Origin: Oscillospiraceae bacterium
GTDB taxonomy: Bacteria > Bacillota > Clostridia > Oscillospirales > CAG-272
Direction: 5' to 3'
Length of the DNA: 64,000 nucleotides
NCBI GenBank assembly: GCA_015064445.1
Contig: SVSE01000002.1
Span: forward strand, 1 to 64,000
Shown: positions 19,069 to 64,000 of the stretch, piece by piece
How positions within the stretch are numbered: position 1 is the first letter of the stretch
Layout: every line of letters starts with the position of its first letter
Translations under genes and position numbers: made by a program
Notes under the pieces: model-generated
Told to the model about the DNA's origin: nothing
Database searches by the model: none
Seen by the model: only the letters and a program-made list of their open reading frames with translations

Positions 19069-19080
19069 ATTTTATCTATT

Positions 19081-19162
19081 GTGCAATTTGCACAAAAATA
19101 AGCGCCCCCCCCCCGATTTTTGTGCATTTCGCCTTGACACGCGCCTATTTTTATTATATAAT
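19081..19162 (+). promoter_or_regulatory. C-tract promoter element and promoter of the split BspA-like gene
   Basis: A run of 10 C (19105-19114) lies between TTGCACAAAAAT (19088-19099) and GATTTTTGTGCA (19115-19126). After 19 nt comes a consensus promoter: TTGACA (19134-19139), 17 nt, TATAAT (19157-19162). This is one of four such elements in the window, and the only one where the C strand, rather than the G strand, reads in the gene direction. Confidence 0.75.
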
Positions 19163-19204: not shown

Positions 19205-20131
19205 ATGAAGAAAAAACTATTTTTATTTGTCGCTTTAATCGTGGCAATTTGCGCTATCCTCGCAATTTCGGTTAGTGCTGACGAGGTTACGCCACCAACA
19301 AGAACAAATCTTACCGTTCTTGCCGAGGACGTTGTCGTTTTCTATGACGGAAACTCTTGTCCTAGCGCATATATCTTTAAGGACCAAACAAGCATTCCAA
19401 ACGGTTCTTGGGGAAATCCTGGTTTAAATCAAGTTCTTGATTTTGAGTATGCAAACCAAAAATTTGGCAAGACCTACTCTATTGCCGACATAAAGGAGCT
19501 TGATATTCCACAAGGAATCACCACCATTGGTTCCTATGTTGGACATAACCTTAGTACTTTGAAGAAAATCTCTTTCCCTAGCTCTGTAACAAGCCTTGGC
19601 GATGTTGGATTTGAGAATGCATCAGGTCTTGAGGAGTGCGTATTTGAGCACACAGAGAAAGACGCAGGTCCTACCACTCTTGGTCCTTGGATGTTCGCCG
19701 GATGCTCAAGTCTTAAGGCAATCAGTTTGCCCGACAGTGTAACAACAATTACGAACGGCGAAGGAAACTTTTTTAACAGCTGTAGCAATTTGGGCGCTGT
19801 ATATCTTCCAAAAAATCTTCAAACAATCAACAATTCGGGAAAAAACGCTCTTTTCTATGGTCTTAGTAAGGTATATTTTGTGAACGAGCCGTTTTCAACA
19901 AGCGATACAGCTCCTGCAAAGCCTACTGTTTACTACTTCCCTGAAAATCTTACAACTATTTCGGGTGGCCCTACATTTGAAGGATGCTCTAGTTTAAATA
20001 GCGTTTTGGTATTTGGAGAGCATTTTACCGACGCAAGCCTAACATCCGACAGCGGTAGCTATCTTTTCAAGAATGTTTCAAGCACTATCGTTTTCCTTGG
20101 CGATATGACCGCAATAAACACAACTAACTGA
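19205..20131 (+). CDS. BspA-like leucine-rich-repeat secreted protein, N-terminal part
   Basis: The 308-codon first part of a surface protein. A signal peptide covers residues 1-25 (MKKKLFLFVALIVAIC, cleavage after SVSA). LRR_5/BspA-type repeats follow, with motifs such as LKKISFPSSVTSLGDVGF, LKAISLPDSVTTI and LGAVYLPKNLQTI. These repeats mediate binding to host or microbial surfaces in related proteins. The frame is cut by TGA at 20129-20131, and the same frame stays open for another 969 nt. The complete protein would be about 631 residues, like the 649-residue relative at 36225. The ATG has an AAAGGAG site, and the promoter carries the C-tract element. If the TGA terminates, a secreted fragment lacking the C-terminal module would be made. 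Confidence 0.75.
   Translation: MKKKLFLFVALIVAICAILAISVSADEVTPPTRTNLTVLAEDVVVFYDGNSCPSAYIFKDQTSIPNGSWGNPGLNQVLDFEYANQKFGKTYSIADIKELDIPQGITTIGSYVGHNLSTLKKISFPSSVTSLGDVGFENASGLEECVFEHTEKDAGPTTLGPWMFAGCSSLKAISLPDSVTTITNGEGNFFNSCSNLGAVYLPKNLQTINNSGKNALFYGLSKVYFVNEPFSTSDTAPAKPTVYYFPENLTTISGGPTFEGCSSLNSVLVFGEHFTDASLTSDSGSYLFKNVSSTIVFLGDMTAINTTN
20129..20131 (+). other. in-frame TGA splitting the BspA-like gene
   Basis: The codons around it read AAC TGA GGT GTT. Before and after it the same frame is open and codes for continuous LRR-type protein. TGG (Trp) to TGA is a one-base change. TGA is a real stop in this genome, as ATGA gene overlaps at 13371, 18208 and 44252 show, so code reassignment is unlikely. 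Confidence 0.8.
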
Positions 20132-35190: not shown

Positions 35191-36036
35191 TTATTCATTG
35201 TAGTATGGTGTATCCTCAAAGCCCTTTTCGTTAAGCTTAGCAACCATTTTATCAAGACGTGCCTTAATCTTTCTTTGGAAGAAGCTTGTGTTGCCGTATT
35301 TTGCAACAAGGCTTGGGCTAATCTTGTAGTAAAGCTTAATAAATAGTCTTCCGTACCACGTTCTTGCAAGAGTTTCGTCTCTATATCTACGAAGTGTCCA
35401 AACCTGCGGGCAATCATACGAGCCGTAAACCGCAGTCGCCACGTAGCATCCTCCCGTTCTTTTCGGTCCGCCGTTATTGAGTGCCATAAACGCTCTATCC
35501 TCATAAATGATAAAACTGAAGTTGAGCTGTTTTTCCTTAAATGGATACGTAACCGTGCAGAAAAGATACGTTTGCTCAACAGGGTCGGTAATATCGTACT
35601 GCTTAAGAATCGCCTTGCTATATACGAAATCAGGGAACGCTTCCTTGAATGGCTCTCTACCCACCTTATCACAAATTGTGCTAAGATTTCCTGGAACCAT
35701 CTTGTTGCCGGCTTGAGGGCTAGAGATAAAGTTGCTTACATATTTTGTAAGCTCGGGATCGGTTACGATAAGGGCACTGTACTGAGAATCAAATTCTCTA
35801 TCCCATCTTGTATCACCCGAGGTTTTCCAACCGTAAAGGCGCGCAAGAAAGTCTATTCTGCGAATTGAAAAGGTTCTTTCTTGACAGGTTGTAATTACGT
35901 CCTCGTTTGCGGTCTTAACCCAATCAATGAAGTATTGCCATGTTTTTACCCAACCGGGCTGTGATGCGCCGTATAAATTGACGTATTCGTCAAAATACTC
36001 GACAAGCTTTTGAAGTGCGATTTTCTTATTGCTCAT
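35191..36036 (-). CDS. CFI-box C-terminal domain protein, unknown function
   Basis: A 281-residue protein with no signal peptide. Residues 1-190 are an unrecognised alpha/beta region (KLVEYFDEYVNLYGASQPGWV...; FSFIIYEDRAFMALN). Near residue 195 begins the CFI-box-type module: GGCYVATAVYGSYDCPQVW, then LRRYRDETL, then GRLFIKLYYKISPSLVAKYG. This motif, known from many anaerobes at protein C-termini, has an unclear role. The ATG at 36036 is used, with AAGGAGAAC just upstream. Its promoter carries a C-tract element like those of the BspA-like genes, although this product is not secreted. Confidence 0.7.
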   Translation of the reverse strand: MSNKKIALQKLVEYFDEYVNLYGASQPGWVKTWQYFIDWVKTANEDVITTCQERTFSIRRIDFLARLYGWKTSGDTRWDREFDSQYSALIVTDPELTKYVSNFISSPQAGNKMVPGNLSTICDKVGREPFKEAFPDFVYSKAILKQYDITDPVEQTYLFCTVTYPFKEKQLNFSFIIYEDRAFMALNNGGPKRTGGCYVATAVYGSYDCPQVWTLRRYRDETLARTWYGRLFIKLYYKISPSLVAKYGNTSFFQRKIKARLDKMVAKLNEKGFEDTPYYNE

Positions 36037-36091: not shown

Positions 36092-36172
36092 ATGATATCA
36101 TATTTGCATTGTTTTTGTCAATATGCACAATATACGAAATGCCCCCTCCGATTTTTGTGCTTATTGCACAAA
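36092..36172 (-). promoter_or_regulatory. C-tract promoter element (interrupted) of the CFI-box gene
   Basis: Minus strand: TTGACA (36116-36121), 18-nt spacer, TATCAT (36092-36097). Starting 20 nt upstream of the -35 is an interrupted tract, CCCCCTCC on the plus strand (36142-36149), flanked by GATTTTTGTGC and followed by TTATTGCACAAAAAT. The broken tract should be less prone to length change than those at 19105, 38274 and 56214. Confidence 0.7.
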
Positions 36173-36202
36173 AATAGCGCGATCTTGAAATCGCGCTATT
36201 TA
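36172..36202 (-). terminator. terminator of the 36225 BspA-like gene
   Basis: AAATAGCGCGAT, loop CTTGAA, ATCGCGCTATTT: a 12-bp perfect stem. Confidence 0.85.
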
Positions 36203-36224: not shown

Positions 36225-38174
36225 TTATGCCTGTTGCTCTTTTTTGCTTGGCATTACATAGTCGCCAAGGTCGGAGAGATTTGAGTTGCCTGCTTTAACT
36301 GAGGCAAGTGTTACTGTGTAAAGTGAGGTTCCACCGAGAGTAACTCTTTCGCTTGCACATTCTGTGGTTTGCGATTGAATGAATTCAACGTCATTTTCAT
36401 CTGTATAAGCGTAGATTGCAAGGATAAGTGAAAGGTTTTCTGCATTTCCCTTAAAGCCTGTTATAGCAATTGAGATATTTGCATATCTTGCGCTTGACAT
36501 ATCTGTTTGAACAAAGCCCTTAGTTGCATTCACCTCTCCATTTACAAAGAAGCTTTCCTTACCGTCAAGATAATCAGGGTTGATAAGTATAACACCGTAC
36601 TTTACAGTTGCATCCTTATTCACTCTATTATACTCATCAAGAGCACCTGCATTAAGCTCATAGCCTCCGAATGCAATTCCATCCTCGCCCTTTGTTGAAA
36701 AGCCATTATTCTCATTCATAACAAAGATTGCAGGTACTGTTGTTTGTGCAAGAGGCTGACAGTTTGGATTTAGACATCCTGAGTAAAGAATACCTGTGCT
36801 AGCAAAGCCGTTTGGATATTCAATAGCCTCGCTCATATTGTGTGCATCATACTTTGTTGCTGTAACTCCGCATCCGTTTGCGCATGCGTCAGCTGTTGTA
36901 CAATCGTTGTCGAATTTGTGAACGCCCTTATGGAAAGCATCACAGGAGTTGTAGCCGTAGATGATATAGTCGCCGTCTGAGTATGCGGTTGGGTCAAGCT
37001 TTATAGCTGCACTGTAGGTTTCGTATGAAACTGTTGTAGCATTCAAGAAATTTCCGTTGTTTTGCCAAGATGTTGATGTGCCATCTGTAAAGTTTTTCTT
37101 TGCTATATTAAACTGTTCAAGAGTTCCACAATAGAAGAATTTAACATTTGTTCCACCGTCAAATGCATACGAAACCTGATACTTTGTTTCAGGCATTGTT
37201 GCATAGAATGTTACAGGGAGATAAACCTCTCTTAGATCCGTTACACAGTGTGTAAAAGAGTGGTGGTCATTTCTTATGCTGCCATTGGCATTTGTGTTTA
37301 CAAAGTGAGTAAAATACTCGGGGAATCTAATAATCTCAAGGTGTGTAGTGTAGCTGAGCATATTGTTTTCAATCGTTATATTAGCTGATGGCAATTGGAT
37401 ATCATAAACCTTAGCGCCCTTGAAAGCTCCGGTTTGGATTGTAATAGGCGTAGTACGCTCATCAAAGGTAAGCTGATCAAGAGATACACAAAAATAAAAC
37501 GCTCTACCATTGTTATCACTTTCGGAACGAATTTTTGTAACCGATGCAGGAATGTTTACCTTCCTAAGCGATTTGCTGTTATGGAAAGCAAGATAGTTGA
37601 TTTCGGTACAAACAGAGTTCTTATCAAATTCAACCTCAAGAACCTTTGTTGCCTGTACAAGACGCTCTGTATTAGTCAAGGTGTTAGGGCAACGAAGGAA
37701 CAAAATTTCAAGCTTATCGGGAGTATAGTCTACACCTGCCTGGAAGTTTACAGCGCTATAATCGGAGAAAGCTGTGATGCCCATATCGTTTGGCATATTC
37801 ATACTAACTACGTTTTGCTTTGTAGGAACAGGGTATCCCTCTACCTTAAAATCTGCTTCCTTGATAAATCTAAAGTATCCGCCACCGTGATTTGTGTATG
37901 CAGGGTCGGTAGAAACGAAGCTTTTTACGGTTTTAACTCCGTTTGCCTCGTCGGTTGCGATAACGTACCAGGTAAGAGGTTGATTTTGCTCATTCCACAT
38001 AGGGAATCTTCCCTCATACTCGGTTACAATCTTTGAGGAGTCGTCTATTGTAAGGGTTAGGTAGGTTGTGCCTGCCTCGTCCTTATAGGTCCACTCCTTT
38101 GCGCTTACGCTAAGTGCGAAAATTGCAGTCAACATAGCAACTAAAAGCGCAAAAAACAAAATTTTTCTTTTCAT
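36225..38174 (-). CDS. BspA-like leucine-rich-repeat surface protein
   Basis: A 649-residue secreted protein. The signal peptide is MKRKILFFALLVAMLTAIF to SVSA (residues 1-25). Residues about 30-400 hold LRR_5/BspA-type repeats and a leader domain (TYLTLTIDDSSKIVTEYEGRFP). Motifs include SLRKVNIPASVTKI, LEIIRFPEYFTHF and LREVYLPVTFYA. A Cys-rich linker follows (CTTADACANGCGVTATKYDAHN), then the C-terminal module shared with the other three BspA-like proteins here: YPNGFASTGILYSGC, VKYGVILINPDYL, AIYAYTDENDVEFIQSQ. The 631-codon length of the gene split at 20129 is close to this. The promoter has an 11-base C tract, so expression may vary. The anchor is unknown; there is no LPXTG or membrane tail. 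Confidence 0.85.
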   Translation of the reverse strand: MKRKILFFALLVAMLTAIFALSVSAKEWTYKDEAGTTYLTLTIDDSSKIVTEYEGRFPMWNEQNQPLTWYVIATDEANGVKTVKSFVSTDPAYTNHGGGYFRFIKEADFKVEGYPVPTKQNVVSMNMPNDMGITAFSDYSAVNFQAGVDYTPDKLEILFLRCPNTLTNTERLVQATKVLEVEFDKNSVCTEINYLAFHNSKSLRKVNIPASVTKIRSESDNNGRAFYFCVSLDQLTFDERTTPITIQTGAFKGAKVYDIQLPSANITIENNMLSYTTHLEIIRFPEYFTHFVNTNANGSIRNDHHSFTHCVTDLREVYLPVTFYATMPETKYQVSYAFDGGTNVKFFYCGTLEQFNIAKKNFTDGTSTSWQNNGNFLNATTVSYETYSAAIKLDPTAYSDGDYIIYGYNSCDAFHKGVHKFDNDCTTADACANGCGVTATKYDAHNMSEAIEYPNGFASTGILYSGCLNPNCQPLAQTTVPAIFVMNENNGFSTKGEDGIAFGGYELNAGALDEYNRVNKDATVKYGVILINPDYLDGKESFFVNGEVNATKGFVQTDMSSARYANISIAITGFKGNAENLSLILAIYAYTDENDVEFIQSQTTECASERVTLGGTSLYTVTLASVKAGNSNLSDLGDYVMPSKKEQQA

Positions 38175-38225: not shown

Positions 38226-38310
38226 ATTGTAGCACAAATCGGTATAATTTGTCAATATGCACAATAAACAAATCCCCCCCCCCCGATTTTTGTGCTTATT
38301 GCACAAAAAT
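38226..38310 (-). promoter_or_regulatory. C-tract promoter element of the 36225 gene
   Basis: Minus strand: TTGACA (38250-38255), 18-nt spacer, TACAAT (38226-38231). Starting 18 nt upstream of the -35 is a run of 11 bases (C on plus, 38274-38284), bounded by TATTGTTTAT-like and GATTTTTGTGC arms and followed by the TTATTGCACAAAAAT palindrome half. Confidence 0.75.
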
Positions 38311-52240: not shown

Positions 52241-55200
52241 TTACTCTTCGTCAGAAGATGGAACGAGCGCGTCAGGCTGTTCGGTTACATTTGCAACAAC
52301 GAGGTCGAGTGTTACCTTTGTAAAGGACTGTCCACCGATTGTTGTAGCTATAGCATAATCGTTTTCTGCCTGAATGAAGCTTACATTGCCATTTTCATCG
52401 ATTACATATGCGCAAATTACAAGCTCAAGTGTTGATGAGTGTGTTCCAAAGTTAGTGATTGAGCAGCTAAAGTTGGTATAGGACTTGTCTTTTATTTGAA
52501 CCTGCATTGCCTGTGTGATGCTAACCTTATTTTCGCCATTAAAGAAGCTATTGCCATTAAAGAGATTTGCGTTAGCAATTACAACACCATAGGTGATTGC
52601 ACCGTTATAGCTCTCGTAAAGAGCAAGAAGCTCGGTATCTACAACATATCCACCATCAAGCGAGGTTTTTGCACTATTTGTTGAATAGCCCTTTGCAGCA
52701 AAGATAGGAGCTACCTCAGTGTTAGAGGTAATTGCACATCTTGCACACTTGGTAAGGATTGCGCCTGCCTTGTCAAAGCCGTTTGGATATTCCATTCCAA
52801 AAAGAACTGCTCCGTCGGAAACGTCAAATTCGTGTCCGAGCTTTTCAACAATCTCGGTTGCAATAAGAGCGTCACATGCTGTACAATGCTTTTCCTTAAG
52901 TCCGTCCTCGTCGCAGTCAGGTGCAAGTGTTTGTATTAATTCGCCTGGGTTGTGTCCGAGAGCATCAGCTGATTGTGTTTCGGCTACTTCTCCACAGGTT
53001 TTACAAAGCTTAACGTTTGTTCCTGCGAGTGTACAGCTTGGAGCTGTAGCTTGAGTCCATTCAACGCCCTCGATATCGTGTCCTGTTGCAGGTATAACCT
53101 CGCTTTGAGCAAGGAGCTTACAGTCCTTACAAAGCTTAACTTGAAGTCCGTCCGTTGTACAGGTTACAGGCAAGGTTACCTCAAACTCAACACCCTCAAC
53201 GTTGTGCTCCTTTTGTGGGTCGTCGGGGTTATCAACCGTGATTGTTTCATCACAACGAGCGCACTTGTAGGTGATTGTTCCACCTTTTAGGCAGGTTGAA
53301 GGAGTTGTTTCAACTACTGTTGCTCCCTTTTCGGGATCAAACTCGTGTCCCTTTGCAGGTGTTACCTCGCCAACGGTGATTGTTCCGCCTGTTGTATCGC
53401 CTGTATAGCCTGAATATGCGGATACTGTATATGTAGCATCAGCTACTACTCCGCAAGGACAATCGGTTGTGTAAGCGGTTGAGCCCTGTGCCGTACAGGT
53501 TGGCTCTGAGCCACCCTCGATGTACTTGTGAGGTATACCATTGTAAACCACATATTTACAGTTAGTTGGAGTTTTTACAACCTCATTTGCGTAAATGTAC
53601 ACATTATAAGCATTTCTATCGTTAAAAGTGCTTTGGCTGGAACCGTTTACAGTAGAAGTGTTAAACTCTATCAAATCGGCATGGCAGTAAATATAAATGT
53701 CATTCTTAGCCACATAGCTTCCAGAGGTTTTTACACTAAACACCCATTTAGCGACATATTCAATATCCATCATAACTACCTTGGACAATACTGCGTTACC
53801 GCCGAATATCGAATAAGCACCGTTGTTTCCATCATCGCCAAGTGCTATTTTTCCATCGCTGGTTTTAGTGCTAATGCAGTTTTTACCTATGTAGACATAC
53901 TCGATTGTGGTTGTTTCGGCAAAGCTTTTTTGAGAAAGTGTTACCATAGAATCGTCAGGCAAGATAACCTCTTTGAGTCCCGAGCTGGCAAAAGCAAATG
54001 TACCAAAATTATATGTTTGACCTGAGCCGAGAAGAAGATGCTTTACAGCTGTAAAGCCCTTAAAGGCATTTGATTTAAATGTTGCATTTGATTTTGAAAC
54101 GTCGATTGTTGCAAGATTTGCACAGTTATTAACAGTGTACTGCTCGAAAACAAGAGTACAGTTTTCCGCTACAATTTTTATGAGGTTAGCACAGCTATCA
54201 ATCGATTTTTGTGCAAGAGTTGCATTTGCACCCTCGGAAAAGTAAATTTCTTCAAGTGCGGACATGCTCTTTATTGCTCCTGCAGGAATGCTTGTAACAC
54301 CGGCTGGAATTACGAGTTTAACGATGCTTGAAGCATTATATGTCTTTGAAGGATCGCTTGGATCTGCAAAGGTCTTTATTGCGCCAAACACTCCGTCCGT
54401 TATAGTATAAACGTCGGACACCTTAACAATAACGGTCTTATTTGTATCGCCATCCTTTACAACAAGCTCTATCAAAATATCACTTGACGAGAATGAATAA
54501 TCCTCATAATAGCAACCGTGTGAGCAGGTTGTGCTTGGATTTGCTTCGTCGTAATCGGTGTGAGTGCCGTTTTCATAGCAATCGCATCTCGAACAAATAA
54601 AGAGCTTCTTACCGTTTTCGATAGCGGTTGCTAATTTTGTTACCTTAACTATTGAATAGTCATGGCCGAGTGCGCTTCCGTACTCAACGTTCGAGGTAGA
54701 ATCACAACGAACGCACTTGTAGGTCTTATATGCCTTTGCAAAGCAGGTAGCGGGGGTTTCGGACGCAAGCACACTGTAATCATGTCCAAGCGCGTCAACT
54801 GCATCTACATAATAGCTACCGCAGTCGCAACGGAAATAGTAAGCTCCGGCGGTTGTACAGGTAGAGGCAGTATCTTCATACACCTCTGCTTTAACATAGT
54901 TATGTACACCGTTTGAATTTTCAACAGTACAGCCTACGTAAACTACATCGTAATAGCCTGTTTCGTTGTTGTAAACGCATTCATAGCCGTTTTTGAGAAT
55001 TCCATCAGGAAGCTTCACACTATAAGAACCACCTGTGACTGTGAAAACATCATAGTTTTCCATAGTAAGAGATTCTTTTGTATATGTTCCGCTAGTATCC
55101 TTGTCTTTATAATCGCTCGTCCAAAAATGAATACTTTTTGCACTTTCGGGAAGGACAAAGGTTCCACCAGTGATGGTAACTTTAAACGATTGAGCATTTG

Positions 55201-56110
55201 TTGTGTTATCAATGACAAATCTATTAGCACTAATTTTTACAGTTGCCCCATCCATAATTTCAATTCTTGGATTAGAGTTATAGCTGTTTACATTACCTAA
55301 ATGATAAACATTCACATCGCCATAAATTTTAACATACGGATATCCGGATTTTCTCATGGACCCCTCAGAGTCATCAAAAAGACGATGATTTGGAGCATCA
55401 ATCGTTACATCAACACCAACAACTGTCTTATTACGATCTCCGTTGTGGCTGTGTGATTTCATGTTGAACACATAGTATGTACCGGCAGCCTTAGTATCGT
55501 TTACGAATTTTATGGTTCCTTCTCCATATATGTATCTTCCAGTTCTTTGTTGCCCTAAACCATTTATATTTCCGTTGAAGGTGATATCGTATCCGTTAAG
55601 GAAAATAATGTTAGATGCTTCGCCCTTAATACTAACGTATTCTTTGAATTCAACATCATGTGTGAGAATTACAGCGTGCGGAGAGGTATTTATCAACGAC
55701 GAAAATTGTTTTGCCTGTGAGTTAGAGTTATTTGGGTCATAAACGAATTCTTTAGCGGCACAACGGAAAAGCTTAGTGTCCTCCGTAAACACTACCTGTT
55801 CTCCTGCTTTGTAGGCACGTCCCTCTTGAGTGTACCAAATAAGATGAAAGCCGTCGGCACCTGTATTGGTGTCGCTTGATGTGGTTGGCAAGGTTATCGT
55901 TTCTCCTGCCTTTACTGTGATTTTACCGTCAGCATGAGCGGTTGTGTCAAGCGCAGTAGAAGTGCTCAACGTATCGCTTGTGTTCATGAAGCTAACAGTA
56001 ATGGTCTTTTCTGCTTCACCTGTTTCTTCTGCTGAAATCGCCATTACTGAAATAGACACAAGACAAGCAAGCGCGATTAACAGTGTGAAGAAAATTTTGA
56101 ATTTTTTCAT
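52241..56110 (-). CDS. giant BspA-like surface protein with CxxC repeats
   Basis: A 1,289-residue secreted protein. The signal peptide is MKKFKIFFTLLIALACLVSI to AISA. Residues about 30-350 look like a beta-solenoid/beta-helix region (TIKFVNDTKAAGTYYVFN; IEIMDGATVKIS). Two or more CxxC repeats follow, then LRR_5/BspA repeats (LEEIYFSEGANAT; LKEVILPDDSMVTL). A further run of CxxC repeats has the form TCTTDGLQVKLCKDCKLLAQS with a GH or GHD spacer. The end is the C-terminal module shared with the other BspA-like genes (YESYNGAITYGVVIANANLF; ELVICAYVIDENGNVSFIQ), closing on the acidic SSDEE. The ATG at 56110 has an AAAGGAGA site, and a C-tract promoter lies upstream. No LPXTG anchor is visible. 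Adhesion is likely by family analogy. Confidence 0.83.
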   Translation of the reverse strand: MKKFKIFFTLLIALACLVSISVMAISAEETGEAEKTITVSFMNTSDTLSTSTALDTTAHADGKITVKAGETITLPTTSSDTNTGADGFHLIWYTQEGRAYKAGEQVVFTEDTKLFRCAAKEFVYDPNNSNSQAKQFSSLINTSPHAVILTHDVEFKEYVSIKGEASNIIFLNGYDITFNGNINGLGQQRTGRYIYGEGTIKFVNDTKAAGTYYVFNMKSHSHNGDRNKTVVGVDVTIDAPNHRLFDDSEGSMRKSGYPYVKIYGDVNVYHLGNVNSYNSNPRIEIMDGATVKISANRFVIDNTTNAQSFKVTITGGTFVLPESAKSIHFWTSDYKDKDTSGTYTKESLTMENYDVFTVTGGSYSVKLPDGILKNGYECVYNNETGYYDVVYVGCTVENSNGVHNYVKAEVYEDTASTCTTAGAYYFRCDCGSYYVDAVDALGHDYSVLASETPATCFAKAYKTYKCVRCDSTSNVEYGSALGHDYSIVKVTKLATAIENGKKLFICSRCDCYENGTHTDYDEANPSTTCSHGCYYEDYSFSSSDILIELVVKDGDTNKTVIVKVSDVYTITDGVFGAIKTFADPSDPSKTYNASSIVKLVIPAGVTSIPAGAIKSMSALEEIYFSEGANATLAQKSIDSCANLIKIVAENCTLVFEQYTVNNCANLATIDVSKSNATFKSNAFKGFTAVKHLLLGSGQTYNFGTFAFASSGLKEVILPDDSMVTLSQKSFAETTTIEYVYIGKNCISTKTSDGKIALGDDGNNGAYSIFGGNAVLSKVVMMDIEYVAKWVFSVKTSGSYVAKNDIYIYCHADLIEFNTSTVNGSSQSTFNDRNAYNVYIYANEVVKTPTNCKYVVYNGIPHKYIEGGSEPTCTAQGSTAYTTDCPCGVVADATYTVSAYSGYTGDTTGGTITVGEVTPAKGHEFDPEKGATVVETTPSTCLKGGTITYKCARCDETITVDNPDDPQKEHNVEGVEFEVTLPVTCTTDGLQVKLCKDCKLLAQSEVIPATGHDIEGVEWTQATAPSCTLAGTNVKLCKTCGEVAETQSADALGHNPGELIQTLAPDCDEDGLKEKHCTACDALIATEIVEKLGHEFDVSDGAVLFGMEYPNGFDKAGAILTKCARCAITSNTEVAPIFAAKGYSTNSAKTSLDGGYVVDTELLALYESYNGAITYGVVIANANLFNGNSFFNGENKVSITQAMQVQIKDKSYTNFSCSITNFGTHSSTLELVICAYVIDENGNVSFIQAENDYAIATTIGGQSFTKVTLDLVVANVTEQPDALVPSSDEE

Positions 56111-56166: not shown

Positions 56167-56240
56167 ATATTAGCACACGCGCGAATTTTTGTCAAGTTGC
56201 ACAAAAACAAGAGCCCCCCCCCCGTTTTTTGTTGAATTTG
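56167..56240 (-). promoter_or_regulatory. C-tract promoter element of the 52241 gene
   Basis: Minus strand: TTGACA (56190-56195), 17-nt spacer, TAATAT (56167-56172). A run of 10 bases (C on plus, 56214-56223) starts 18 nt upstream of the -35, next to a TTTTTTGTTGAATTTGCAT arm. A further GATTTTTGTGCA copy occurs near 56299. The gap 56111-56385 holds nothing else but the terminator at 56360. Confidence 0.72.
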
Positions 56241-56359
56241 CATAAATTGATTTCGTTTTTCGGGCGATATGTGGCTCGATTTTATATTTCATCCTCTTTG
56301 ATTTTTGTGCATTCCTACAAAATTTTTATATTTTTTAAATTTTTTCAAAAAATAAAAAA

Positions 56360-60859: not shown

Positions 60860-63800
60860 TTATTCCTCGTCTGATGATGGAACGAGCGCGTCAGGCTGTT
60901 CGGTTGCATTTGCAACAACGAGGGCAAGTGTTACCTTTGTAAAGGCTGCACCGCCGATTTCGATTGCTACTGCATAGTTGTTTTCTGCCTGAATGAAGGT
61001 TGCGTTACCGTCCTCATCAATTACATATGCACAAATTACAAGCTCGAGTGTGTCTGCGTTTGCACCAAAGCCCGAGAGTGTAAGGTCGAAGTTACTGTAG
61101 CTCTTCATTGTGATTGGAACTTGAATTGCCTTTTCGGTATTTACTGCTCCGTTATTAAAGAAGCTTCCTGTAAATGAGTTAGCGTTTGCGATTACAACAC
61201 CATAGGTGATTGCACCGTTATAGCTCTCGTAAAGAGCAAGAAGCTCAGTATTTACAGAGTATCCACCGTTGATAGCATTCTTGTCAGGATTTGTTGAATA
61301 TCCCTTTGCCTCGAAGATAGGATCAACCTCTGCGCCACTTGTTTCGTCACATCTTGCACACTTGGTAAGGATTGCGCCTGCCTTGTTAAAGCCGTTTGGA
61401 TATTCCATTCCGGAAAGAACTGCTCCGTTAGAAACGTCAAATTCGTGTCCGAGCTTTTCGATAGCTTGGGTTGCGATAAGAACATTGCATCTTGTGCAAT
61501 ATTGCTCTTTAAGTCCGCTATCATCGCAGTCAGGCTCAAGAACTGTTGTAAATTCGCCAGGATTGTGTCCGAGTGCAGCAATTGGCTGAGTTGCAACAAC
61601 GATTGAACAGGTCTTGCATTTCTTAGCCTCTGTTCCTGCAAGAGTACAGGTAGGATCAGCTGTCTTTTCCCATTCAACGCCTTCGATATCATGTCCTGTT
61701 GCAGGAATGATTTCACTTTCGGCAAGAGCCTTACAGTCCTTACAGTTCTTTTGCTTGAGTCCGTCAGTTGCGCAAGCTGCTTGTATCTTAATTTCCCACT
61801 CAACGCCCTCAATATTATGGCCTGTTGCTGTATTTTCTTGAACTACTGTCAAGGTTTCATCACAACGAGCGCACTTGTAGGTTGTTGTAGCGTCCTTAAT
61901 ACATGTTGCAGGAGTTGTAGCAACAACTGTTGCACCGTCTGCCTCATCAAACTCGTGGCCAAGAGCATCAGTTGTAGCGCCGATTACAATTTCGCCTGCG
62001 ATTGCTGTTGTTCCGTTTACAGCTGTGTTAGGGCTAACCGCCTTATATGTTGTGTAGGTTGCATTTGCAACTACTCCACAAGGGCAGTTGGTTGTGTAGC
62101 CTGTTGAACCCATTGCAGTACATGTTGCATCAACATTTCCTTCCTTATATTCGTGAGGGATTCCTCTTACGATTGTATAAGCAGGATAAGTTACCTCAAC
62201 ACCGTTTACAGTCTTAGTAACGTTTGAGCTACCGATGCTTGCAGGTGTTGTTGTGAAATTCAATGCATTTGTGTAAAGAATTACACCGTATGATTGATAG
62301 AGGAAGTTACCTTGACGAACATTAAGCTGGTCTGCATGGTGATAAATTCTAAGAACATCCTCACCCTTATTTACACAACAAGTAAAATACTGTCCTGTAA
62401 TTTCGGTAACATCCATAAGAACCAAGGTTTGGAGATAGTCACACTGGTCAAAAATGTTATCAAGGCTTGTGATTCCACGACCAACATAAACATACTTCAA
62501 GCTATATGTTTGGAAGAAGGTTGCATATGCAGCGGAAAATTCGCTTGTATAGTCAGGAATGATAAATTCTTCAAGTCCAGTCTTACGGAATACTTCCTTT
62601 TGGAAGTGATAAGCCTTTCCTGAGCCCATCAAGAACTTCTTAACGCCGCTCTTGTCAGCAAAAGCATATTCCTTCAAGGTTGCATTTGCCTTTGATACAT
62701 CAATTGTAAGGTTGTTTACATTTCCTTCGATAACATATGAGCTAAATACTACTGTGCAATTGCCAACTGTAATGTTTTCAAGACTTGGAGAATTGCTAAT
62801 AGAGTTCTTTGCAAAGGTTAAGTTCGCGCCATCAAGAAGAACGATTTCTTTGATGTTTGTAGCATTCTTAACAGAACCGGATGCAATTTCGGTAATACCT
62901 GCAGGAATTACGAGCTTAACAACATCTGCAATAGTGTATGTCTTTTCTGGATTATCAGGGTCAGTGATTGTTTTTACTCCTGTAAATTTGGAAACGAATC
63001 CACTTGTGCTCTCAGAAACAGTAACATTATAGAGAGTATCAACAGAAGCTGTGATTTCCTTTGTTCCGTCCTCGGTCTTTACAACAATTGTAATAACCTG
63101 TTCTCTTGGGTCAAAGGAATATTCGTATGTATAAGCGTCGCTACATCTAGAGCAAGATACTCTCTTAACACCGTTTTCAGTGGCTGTTGCTATTTTCTCA
63201 ATGCTTATAACAGAATGGTCATGTCCAAGAGCGTTGCCGTATTCTACCTTATTTGTCGAATCGCAACGAATACATTTGTAAATCTTATAAGCCTTAGTGG
63301 TACAAGTTGCAGGAGTTTCAGATACAAGAACATCGTAAGAGTGTCCTACCGCTTCAACAGTATCAACATAGAACTTTCCACAGTCGCAACGGAAGTAATA
63401 AACTCCAAGACCTGTACAAGTTGAAACCATACCCTCGTATGATTCCTTTGGAACGAAGGTGTGAACACCATTAGAGCCTTCAAGTGTACATGGAACATAC
63501 TCTACATCATAAAGTCCTGTTTCGGAATTGTAAATAGCCTCATAGCCATTTTTCAAGATTCCGTCTGGCAAATTCATATTGTATGAGCCACCTGTAACAT
63601 TAAACGCGGCTGAGAGGAATGCAAGATTCCAATCGAATGTTGCAGGATCTGCAACCTTGAATGCAACATCACCCATTGTCAAAACGGTCTGTATTTTGCC
63701 AGTTGATGTGTTGAAGTTCTCCCACCATGTGTTTCCTGTGAGTTCAACGGATGCGCCATCATAAATATTGATTGCGGCATTATCATATTGCAAGTTGTTT

Positions 63801-64000
63801 CTATACTGTCTTACAAGTGTTTTTGCCTTAACTGTTCCATAGAGGTCAAGTCTTGGGTTTGTGATAAGGTTGCCATTGTCAATCATTGAGCCATCAACAT
63901 AAATCAATGCACCGGTTGTTTCAACATTTACATTTTTACCGATGCAAAGACGATTGTTCTTGCCGTCACCGTATCCGTGAGGGCGAAGATGAATCAAAGC
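60860..64000 (-). CDS. giant BspA-like surface protein, paralogue of 52241 (5' end missing)
   Basis: At least 1,046 codons, open to the right edge, so the signal peptide and N-terminus lie beyond the window. The order matches the 52241 protein: a beta-solenoid part (AAINIYDGASVELTGN), CxxC repeats (CTGLGVYYFRCDCG; CTTKAYKIYKCIRC), LRR_5/BspA repeats (LEEFIIPDYTSEFSA; LKYVYVGRGITSL), further CxxC repeats (CIKDATTTYKCARC; CATDGLKQKNCKDC; CTLAGTEAKKCKTC; CDDSGLKEQYCTRC), and the shared C-terminal module ending SSDEE. At the DNA level 61191-61246 is identical to 52578-52633. A C-tract promoter is expected upstream, outside the window. It is probably exported and adhesive. Confidence 0.85.
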   Translation of the reverse strand, partial: ALIHLRPHGYGDGKNNRLCIGKNVNVETTGALIYVDGSMIDNGNLITNPRLDLYGTVKAKTLVRQYRNNLQYDNAAINIYDGASVELTGNTWWENFNTSTGKIQTVLTMGDVAFKVADPATFDWNLAFLSAAFNVTGGSYNMNLPDGILKNGYEAIYNSETGLYDVEYVPCTLEGSNGVHTFVPKESYEGMVSTCTGLGVYYFRCDCGKFYVDTVEAVGHSYDVLVSETPATCTTKAYKIYKCIRCDSTNKVEYGNALGHDHSVISIEKIATATENGVKRVSCSRCSDAYTYEYSFDPREQVITIVVKTEDGTKEITASVDTLYNVTVSESTSGFVSKFTGVKTITDPDNPEKTYTIADVVKLVIPAGITEIASGSVKNATNIKEIVLLDGANLTFAKNSISNSPSLENITVGNCTVVFSSYVIEGNVNNLTIDVSKANATLKEYAFADKSGVKKFLMGSGKAYHFQKEVFRKTGLEEFIIPDYTSEFSAAYATFFQTYSLKYVYVGRGITSLDNIFDQCDYLQTLVLMDVTEITGQYFTCCVNKGEDVLRIYHHADQLNVRQGNFLYQSYGVILYTNALNFTTTPASIGSSNVTKTVNGVEVTYPAYTIVRGIPHEYKEGNVDATCTAMGSTGYTTNCPCGVVANATYTTYKAVSPNTAVNGTTAIAGEIVIGATTDALGHEFDEADGATVVATTPATCIKDATTTYKCARCDETLTVVQENTATGHNIEGVEWEIKIQAACATDGLKQKNCKDCKALAESEIIPATGHDIEGVEWEKTADPTCTLAGTEAKKCKTCSIVVATQPIAALGHNPGEFTTVLEPDCDDSGLKEQYCTRCNVLIATQAIEKLGHEFDVSNGAVLSGMEYPNGFNKAGAILTKCARCDETSGAEVDPIFEAKGYSTNPDKNAINGGYSVNTELLALYESYNGAITYGVVIANANSFTGSFFNNGAVNTEKAIQVPITMKSYSNFDLTLSGFGANADTLELVICAYVIDEDGNATFIQAENNYAVAIEIGGAAFTKVTLALVVANATEQPDALVPSSDEE

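What the first reader, a model, noticed from the sequence alone, without database searches (positions are those of the whole stretch)
38226..38310. Recurrent C/G-tract promoter element, possible phase-variable control of BspA-like surface genes
Four loci (19081-19162, 36092-36172, 38226-38310, 56167-56240) share the same layout. A C/G run is flanked by TTTTTGTGC-like inverted arms and ends 18-20 bp from the -35 box of a good promoter. Runs of 10-11 bases are rare by chance. Three of the four drive secreted LRR proteins. Homopolymer runs near a -35 alter promoter output by slippage in known cases such as the fimbrial promoters of Bordetella pertussis. The constant spacing here suggests an upstream binding site whose distance from the -35 changes with tract length. 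Taken together, this looks like an undescribed regulatory element tied to a surface-protein family.
Basis: partly seen in the sequence, partly recalled or inferred. Interest (0 to 1): 0.88.

Follow-up and report, generated by a model that had tools for sequence, protein, structure and literature searches.

The report
Slippable spacer in surface-gene promoters
Gut bacteria of one uncultured Clostridia genus often place a run of identical bases between two apparent regulator-binding sites in front of surface-protein genes, nearly always about 28 bases apart, which looks like a built-in mutable switch for changing the cell coat.

Summary
The window's three longest C runs (10, 11, 10) and one interrupted run share one promoter layout; genome-wide all 14 C8+ runs lie in it. 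It is a palindromic operator (op1, TTTTTGTGC-N5-GCACAAAAA), a tract, then a second half-site (op2) beside or overlapping a strong -35. At least 16 same-genus relatives carry it, with G, C or T tracts. In 100 placed promoters op1-op2 spacing is 28 bp in 65 and 27-29 in 94, whatever the tract base or length. A gap-tolerant search not tied to spacing gives the same peak; 116 outgroup genomes do not. Op1-op2 distance is held; op1 to -35 is not (35 or 40 bp). 95 of 99 downstream proteins start with a signal-like sequence; 13 of 17 elements recognised in this genome precede BspA-type LRR genes.

Best reading: a contingency regulon in which tract slippage shifts the helical phase of two cooperating operators, like NadR/nadA but at many loci. 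Slippage, expression effects and the regulator are inferred; I had no reads or strains. New variant of a known kind; nine paper searches listed no description of it.

The parts
19076..19098 (+). op1 palindrome of element 1 (CTATTGTGC-N5-GCACAAAAA)
19105..19114 (+). C10 tract of element 1; op1-op2 spacing 28
19117..19162 (+). op2 half-site TTTTTGTGC (19117-19125), 8 bp, -35 TTGACA (19134-19139), -10 TATAAT (19157-19162)
19205..20131 (+). BspA-type LRR protein with signal-like start, 308 aa
   Evidence: LRR_5 2.3e-21
36152..36174 (-). op1 palindrome of element 2 (perfect arms)
36142..36149 (-). interrupted tract GGAGGGGG of element 2; op1-op2 spacing still 28
36092..36133 (-). op2 half-site (36125-36133), -35 TTGACA (36116-36121), -10 TATCAT (36092-36097)
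35191..36036 (-). 281-aa protein without signal-like start, CFI-box C-terminal domain
   Evidence: NF041770 4.9e-20; no Pfam family
38287..38309 (-). op1 palindrome of the focal element (perfect arms)
38274..38284 (-). G11 tract of the focal element; op1-op2 spacing 29
38226..38267 (-). op2 half-site (38259-38267), -35 TTGACA (38250-38255), -10 TACAAT (38226-38231)
36225..38174 (-). BspA-type LRR protein with signal-like start, 649 aa
   Evidence: LRR_5 1.4e-10
56226..56248 (-). op1 of element 4 (degenerate: 5 mismatches of 18)
56214..56223 (-). G10 tract of element 4; op1-op2 spacing 28
56167..56207 (-). op2 half-site TTTTTGTGC (56199-56207), -35 TTGACA (56190-56195), -10 TAATAT (56167-56172)
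52241..56110 (-). BspA-type LRR protein with signal-like start, 1289 aa
   Evidence: LRR_5 1.1e-13
60860..63997 (-). 3' part of an LRR gene whose promoter element (G10, spacing 28) lies just outside the window at G000:C7:64608-64691

Best explanation
The element is a surface-gene promoter with two operators for one dimeric regulator: a full palindrome upstream (op1) and a second site (op2) beside or overlapping the -35 box, held about four helical turns apart (28 bp between the GCAC and GTGC cores, about 41 bp centre to centre). Shown: the layout, its recurrence, its tie to secreted LRR-type proteins, and the conserved op1-op2 distance. Inferred: regulator dimers on op1 and op2 cooperate, most likely to repress, because op2 sits at the -35 of an otherwise near-consensus promoter. 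The DNA between them usually contains a homopolymer (G, C or T), so that replication slippage adds or removes bases, twists one operator relative to the other and changes how tightly that one gene is repressed. Because most of these genes have their own tract, a population would carry many combinations of surface proteins while the whole set stays under one signal-sensing regulator. My weights: operator pair with constrained spacing about 0.9; tract kept for its mutability about 0.75; length acting through op1-op2 cooperation about 0.6.
For: (1) Spacing. A pattern with free gaps (possible spacing about 17-43) over 29 genus genomes gave 74 matches in 20 genomes; 55 had a homopolymer of 7 or more, with spacing 28 in 32, 29 in 12, 27 in 4, 26 in 2, 30 in 2 and 21, 25, 38 once each; reversed-pattern control 0. 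In 116 other genomes of the order, 20 matches, scattered, 2 of 20 at 27-29, no run above 7 (reversed control 6). (2) Compensation. In 87 placed promoters with tracts, tract length and flank length trade off: variance of spacing 0.50 against 17.8 if independent, 0 of 20,000 permutations; G tracts only 0.49 against 1.12, 1 of 20,000. (3) What is held is op1-op2 (sd 0.80), not op1 to -35 (sd 2.39, modes 35 and 40). (4) One promoter has three operators spaced 28 and 27. (5) The tract stays a homopolymer while its base changes: best-matching genes of different species carry C10/G10 (61% identity, 28/28), C10/T16 (54%, 28/28), G7/T16 (55%, 26/28). (6) Such runs are largely dedicated to the element: 14 of 14 C8+ runs here; 18 of 18 T14+ runs in the four sister genomes tested that have any; 41 of 47 G8+ runs in five relatives. 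(7) 12 of the 13 promoters without a run of 7 or more also sit at 27-29 (8 at 28), so the tract is not needed merely to set distance. (8) One relative uses G runs in known phase-variable positions: between -35 and -10 of twin LRR genes (18 and 19 bp spacers) and inside a methylase/specificity gene (porA as precedent in passages of PMC7864442). (9) Operators flanking a variable repeat with length-dependent repression are shown for NadR (PMC2791445), and a helical-phase requirement, including four turns within about 1 bp, for NrdR (PMC12051234).
Against: No reads, strains or expression data: slippage in a population is not observed. The length distribution is narrow (28 or 29 in 83 of 100), as expected also for plain stabilising selection. 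The focal tract and its best match in G021 are both G11, spacing 29. MutS and MutL are present as full-length-looking frames in the window, so slippage is not raised by their loss. No regulator was identified; repression rather than activation is a guess from the -35 overlap. Op2 is often only a half-site, above all in the 8-bp class. 18 of 31 LRR_5 frames here lack the element. The 100 promoters are not a random sample: most came through a run pattern or a model trained on elements near 28, and they are related by descent, so permutation counts overstate independence.
Confidence: 0.6

Rival explanations
1. Plain co-regulated promoter: two operators at a fixed spacing, with the homopolymer a stiff or merely tolerated spacer. 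Lengths are under stabilising selection and there is no meaningful phase variation.
For: Narrow spacing (65 of 100 at 28), compensating flank changes, tract-less promoters at the same spacing, focal tract the same length in its best match; mismatch repair present.
Against: A spacer needs no homopolymer, and tract-less promoters show it; yet 87 of 100 placed promoters have a run of 7 or more (81 of 100 of 9 or more), with the base turning over between G, C and T, while such runs are rare elsewhere in the genomes tested. G10 DNA and T16 DNA are structurally unlike (textbook); what they share is slippage.
Confidence: 0.22
2. Tract length tunes contact between an upstream site, or the RNA polymerase alpha subunit, and the core promoter, as proposed for H. 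pylori sabA.
For: G and C tracts lie 16-23 bp and T tracts 7-11 bp upstream of the -35; in H. pylori, tracts adjacent to -35 elements modulate output (PMC4081817 abstract and section titles).
Against: Op1 to -35 is not held (35 or 40 bp, about half a helical turn apart) while op1-op2 is. G/C tracts could not act as A/T-type UP elements (established knowledge).
Confidence: 0.1
3. The repeat is a recombination or mobile-element site whose spread shuffled promoters; the tract is a by-product.
For: Op1 resembles a short inverted-repeat core site; tract polarity differs between elements; the gene family is dispersed.
Against: The 100 placed copies are phased to a -35/-10 (a condition of the finder) and 99 have a start codon shortly downstream; sequence outside the operators and promoter boxes diverges; tract-less copies keep the spacing.
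Confidence: 0.04
4. The tract itself is the binding site of a protein that recognises poly-G or poly-C.
For: Tract purity.
Against: The base and strand of the tract change between homologous promoters: G, C or T.
Confidence: 0.04

Closest known systems
NadR / nadA promoter of Neisseria meningitidis (PMC2791445; outline, abstract and passages seen)
   Same: Repressor operators flank a slippable repeat; one operator overlaps the core promoter; repeat number changes repression, which the authors ascribe to operator spacing; the target is a surface adhesin.
   Different: One gene, TAAA repeat, distal operator with an IHF site between, and a third weaker operator over the repeat. Here: many genes per genome, mononucleotide tract of any of three bases, operators about four turns apart, other phylum, regulator unknown.
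Mycoplasma gallisepticum vlhA/pMGA (GAA)n promoters (PMC6258824; outline, abstract and passages seen)
   Same: A family of surface-protein genes, each promoter with a repeat upstream of the core promoter between conserved flanks; one repeat number (12) is reported as the main active one; spacing between flanking regions is implicated (Liu 2002, seen only as a cited title; paper not held).
   Different: Trinucleotide repeat, flanks stated to hold no palindromes, repeat numbers broadly spread (commonest 8); later work found other repeat numbers expressed too. Here palindromic operators and lengths piled up at one spacing.
Bordetella fim C-stretch (PMC1891110 passages), H. pylori sabA T-tract (PMC4081817 outline and abstract), Treponema pallidum tpr poly-G (PMC7864442 passages)
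   Same: Homopolymers of this kind and length in promoters of surface genes; tprL poly-G was measured to vary from 7 to 11 in vivo.
   Different: In what I read, no fixed pair of operators at constant spacing across many promoters, and the tract base is fixed per system.
NrdR boxes (PMC12051234 passages)
   Same: Two operators, one including the -35 in S. pneumoniae nrdDG, best binding at an integer number of helical turns; spacers of 26 plus or minus 1 bp also repress.
   Different: Other motif (recalled), ribonucleotide reductase genes, no slippable tract.

Membership tests
Promoter simple-sequence contingency locus (phase-variable promoter) | Long pure repeat, improbable by chance, in a promoter | tested here: met
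   C8: 10 matches against 0.17 expected in window; 14 of 14 C8+ runs in the element genome-wide
Promoter simple-sequence contingency locus (phase-variable promoter) | Repeat length varies between isolates or within a population | tested here: inconclusive
   Lengths differ between homologous genes of different species and between promoters of one genome (G013 T15-T18); no strains or reads available
Promoter simple-sequence contingency locus (phase-variable promoter) | Length changes expression | not testable with these tools
   no expression data
Promoter simple-sequence contingency locus (phase-variable promoter) | Controls surface or host-interaction genes | tested here: met
   95 of 99 downstream proteins signal-like by a crude script test; 13 of 17 recognised elements in G000 precede LRR_5 genes over cut-off
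NadR-type operator-spacing switch | Operator-like sites on both sides of the repeat, one at or over the promoter | tested here: met
   op1 palindrome and op2 near the -35 placed in 100 of 106 candidate stretches; 6 could not be placed. Binding itself untested
NadR-type operator-spacing switch | Operator spacing under constraint | tested here: met
   27-29 bp in 94 of 100; gap-tolerant pattern gives the same peak, outgroup does not
NadR-type operator-spacing switch | Repeat length alters repression | not testable with these tools
   no expression data
NadR-type operator-spacing switch | A NadR-like repressor binds the operators | not tested
   regulator not identified

The most novel reading that the evidence does not exclude
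A genus-wide contingency regulon in uncultured gut Clostridia: one sensory regulator controls a dispersed family of surface LRR proteins through paired operators four helical turns apart, and most promoters carry their own slippable homopolymer spacer, so heritable per-gene switching is layered on one shared signal. Evolution has kept the spacer's mutability and its 28-bp set point while freely exchanging its base (G, C, T).
Probability: 0.5. Interest if true: 0.85.

Novelty: new variant of a known kind. Interest (0 to 1): 0.74.

Why it matters
Operator-spacing phase variation has been argued for single genes or one gene family in pathogens. Here it appears as an architecture repeated dozens of times in an uncultured gut-commensal genus, with a natural series of tract lengths, bases and tract-less controls around one preferred spacing. 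That makes two questions testable from existing metagenome reads and simple reporters: whether homopolymers are kept for their mutability, and how a commensal diversifies its surface under one regulator.

Tried and rejected
Sequence-specific recognition of poly-C: rejected because T and G versions exist. Tract to -35 as the conserved distance: rejected (7-23 bp). Loss of mismatch repair as the cause of the tracts: rejected, MutS and MutL present. NrdR as the regulator: considered for the four-turn geometry; the box I recall (ACAC-N8-GTGT) has the opposite half-site order; not tested further. CRP/FNR family: recalled spacing is one base longer; not tested. Isolated operators near a regulator gene: six palindromes examined; one proved to be another element (L087); the others lie by genes I took, by eye, for housekeeping or unrelated ones; no regulator candidate. 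Organism scan: 29 stretches, 28 in Clostridia MAGs, one in Filimonas zeae with spacing 24 by my count, taken as chance; that tool may leave out records of the window's own genome.

Weak signals outside the genus: the loose pattern (2 mismatches) also matched 1-3 times in 8 genomes of the order, while its reversed control matched in 11 genomes; the one G014 match (same genus) did not hold up. Model R1 gave matches at E up to 0.01 in 54 of 57 genomes, most of the outgroup ones weak. Five outgroup loci read with the same finder: L172 and L178 not placed; L179 46, L183 20, L185 27 (score 26.2, under the lowest of the 100, 27.2). L180 (G019, same genus): 24.

Papers: searches listed no description of this element, judged from titles, term counts and abstract openings of the rows shown; the library holds open-licence papers only.

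Rows dropped or adjusted before counts: one search failed to place 6 of 106 candidate stretches (L087, L206, L211, L216, L217, L225); L087 was later measured by itself at 28. One duplicate locus (L166, same place as L186) was left out by hand. One search moved six placements ending in a T run by 2 bp and set one (L143) from 38 to 28 by eye. L126 and L234 (both 29) and L233 (cut at a contig end) were found later and are not in the 100. The LRR tally of 31 open frames, 13 with the element, was counted by hand from the 60 stretches; runs were merged by hand.

Full report
WHAT IS THERE. The window is G000:C7:1-64000 of a 1.77 Mb, 13-contig genome. It holds C runs of 10, 11 and 10 at 19105, 38274 and 56214, and no C or G run of 7-9; shuffles expect 0.17 C8 matches against 10 overlapping ones found. 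The 36092 locus has the same layout with an interrupted run, CCCCCTCC. Genome-wide there are 14 C8+ runs on either strand (overlapping hits merged by me) and all 14 lie in the same context.

ANATOMY. Read towards the gene, the element is op1, TTTTTGTGC-N5-GCACAAAAA; a spacer with the tract; op2, TTTTTGTGC or TTATTGTGC; then either 2-4 bp (63 of 100 promoters) or 6-8 bp (37 of 100) to TTGACA, 16-18 bp, and a TATAAT-like box. In the short class the -35 forms the second arm of an op2 palindrome (TTGTGCATATTGACAA). The tract can be G or C on the promoter strand. Op1, op2, -35 and -10 are conserved; most of the -35/-10 spacer and the outer flank are not. The op1 palindrome alone (N5 fixed, up to 3 mismatches) occurs at 22 places in this genome against 1 for the reversed control.

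RELATIVES. A run-plus-operator pattern with 2 mismatches finds the element many times in same-genus genomes G009, G020, G021 and G027, and matches once or twice in three others, of which the G014 match is not an element. It also matched 1-3 times in 8 of 28 genomes outside the family, about as often as its reversed control. A scan of the species-representative collection gave 29 stretches: 28 from Clostridia MAGs labelled goat, roe deer, water deer and 'Lapin' (taken as rabbit), and one unrelated, probably chance. This names G021 as RGIG2159, G020 as RGIG8649, G027 as RGIG4241, G009 as RGIG3858 and G024 as RGIG4287 by equal contig lengths. A sequence model of 54 elements then turned up the same promoter in sister species with a poly-T tract instead. 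The model also gave weak hits in most outgroup genomes; the five I placed or tried to place do not show a good pair at 28.

SPACING. To avoid a circular argument I searched CACAAAA-N8..34-TTTGT-N4..12-TTGACA, which allows spacings from about 17 to 43. In 29 genus genomes it gave 74 matches in 20 genomes, 0 for the reversed pattern. Of the 55 with a homopolymer of 7 or more, spacing was 28 in 32, 29 in 12, 27 in 4, 26 in 2, 30 in 2, and 21, 25 and 38 once each; of the other 19, 3 had no measurable op2, two had 28, and 14 lay elsewhere between 17 and 41. In 116 other genomes of the order the same pattern gave 20 matches (reversed control 6), 2 of 20 at 27-29 and no run above 7. In a wider set of 100 placed promoters from 20 genomes (17 of the genus, 3 MAGs of unknown kinship; not a random sample, see Tried and rejected) spacing was 28 in 65, 29 in 18, 27 in 11, 30 in 3, 26 in 2 and 24 in 1; 87 had a run of 7 or more (G 50, T 26, C 10, A 1; lengths 7 to 18). 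Tract and flank lengths compensate each other: spacing variance 0.50 against 17.8 expected if independent (0 of 20,000 permutations), and within G tracts alone 0.49 against 1.12 (1 of 20,000). Relatedness makes these counts optimistic. Neighbouring similar promoters in G021 show it directly: G11 plus T5 and G10 plus T6, both at 28. Thirteen promoters without a run of 7 or more fall at 28 (8), 27 (3), 29 (1) and 24 (1). There are uncompensated differences too, such as G7 (26) and G9 (28) in G020, or G9 (28) and G11 (30) in G027, with similar flanks.

WHICH DISTANCE MATTERS. Mean op1-op2 spacing is 28.05 in both -35 classes, whereas op1 to -35 is about 35 in one and 40 in the other; standard deviations over all 100 are 0.80 and 2.39. 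So the held quantity is operator to operator. One promoter (L054) has three operators spaced 28 and 27, the tract lying between the outer two. With 5-bp cores this is about 41 bp centre to centre, close to four helical turns (arithmetic and textbook helix repeat).

TRACT IDENTITY. Among reciprocal best hits between downstream proteins (127 pairs, many distant), the 19105 gene (C10) pairs with a G021 gene with G10 at 61% identity; C10 pairs with T16 at 54%; G7 with T16 at 55%; and four mutual best matches carry C7, C10, C12 and C13 at spacings 26, 28, 28 and 29. The focal gene (G11, 29) pairs with a G021 gene that is also G11, 29, at 62%: this one shows no change. In G013, promoters with similar flanks carry T15 to T18. 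T14+ runs: five genomes tested; none in G000, 18 in G013, G004, G001 and G012, all 18 in the element (contexts). G8+ runs in eight relatives: G021 24 (20 in the element), G020 9 (8, and one beside op1 at a contig end), G027 7 (6), G009 6 (6), G003 1 (element-like, spacing 29), none in G013, G004 and G002. Of the remaining five, two in G021 sit between -35 and -10 of neighbouring LRR/Big_2 genes (spacers 18 and 19), one is inside a gene with N-6 methylase and specificity domains whose reading frame ends just after the tract while specificity-domain coding resumes in a separate frame, and two are elsewhere. The first two placements match known phase-variation sites, which supports reading G runs in this lineage as contingency loci.

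GENES. Of 17 elements recognised in G000, 13 are followed by an LRR_5 (BspA-type) gene over the Pfam cut-off, one by a short LRR-like frame under it, and three by other genes: a CFI-box protein, an ABC transporter and a signal-bearing protein with no family match. By my hand count, 13 of 31 LRR_5 frames in the genome have the element, so it marks a subset. Across the set 95 of 99 downstream proteins have a signal-like N terminus by a crude script test.

HOW IT PROBABLY WORKS. Shown: layout, recurrence, gene association, spacing. Inferred: a dimeric regulator on op1 and op2 cooperates, probably as a repressor since op2 sits at the -35; slippage in the spacer alters helical phase and hence repression of that gene. 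The nearest demonstrated case is NadR at nadA, where the repressor binds operators flanking the repeat and repeat number modulates repression (PMC2791445, outline, abstract and passages); NrdR shows a tolerance of about 1 bp at a four-turn spacing (PMC12051234, passages); poly-G of 7-11 was measured to vary in vivo at tprL (PMC7864442, passages). Not shown: slippage in populations, expression effects, the regulator.

VERDICT. A new variant of a known kind.

Noticed in passing
L236:3700-8200 (G021:C10): Two neighbouring BspA-LRR/Big_2 genes have near-identical promoters with G11 and G10 between -35 and -10, giving spacers of 19 and 18 bp, a porA-like arrangement.
   Followed up: partly
L235:2289-6027 (G021:C12): A gene with N-6 methylase and type I specificity domains has a G11 run late in its frame; the frame ends just after it and specificity-domain coding resumes in a separate frame. 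Looks like a frameshift-type variable modification gene.
   Followed up: partly
L054:9552-9690 (G000:C7): A promoter with three tandem operators spaced 28 and 27 bp, the G11 tract between the outer two and no tract in the inner gap.
   Followed up: yes
L233:899-908 (G020:C1 end): The contig ends inside a G10 run next to an op1-like palindrome; an assembly break there could reflect mixed tract lengths.
   Followed up: no
L142, L143, L153: Three named MAGs whose kinship to the genus I could not place (one goat, two 'Lapin') carry the element at spacing 29, 28 and 28; the two Lapin ones precede frames of 2019 and 2514 aa with signal-like starts.
   Followed up: partly
L114-L125 downstream of -10: In G020 and G027 the 5' leaders of several of these genes share a stretch like CACTACTATACAAA after the -10; in G000, G009 and G021 several leaders have a GC-rich stretch that looks like an inverted repeat before the ribosome site (seen by eye; not folded).
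   Followed up: no
L219:572-658 and L220:547-636: Best-matching promoters in G020 and G027 have the operator pair at 28 bp with no homopolymer; one has a GAGAGAGAG stretch instead.
   Followed up: no
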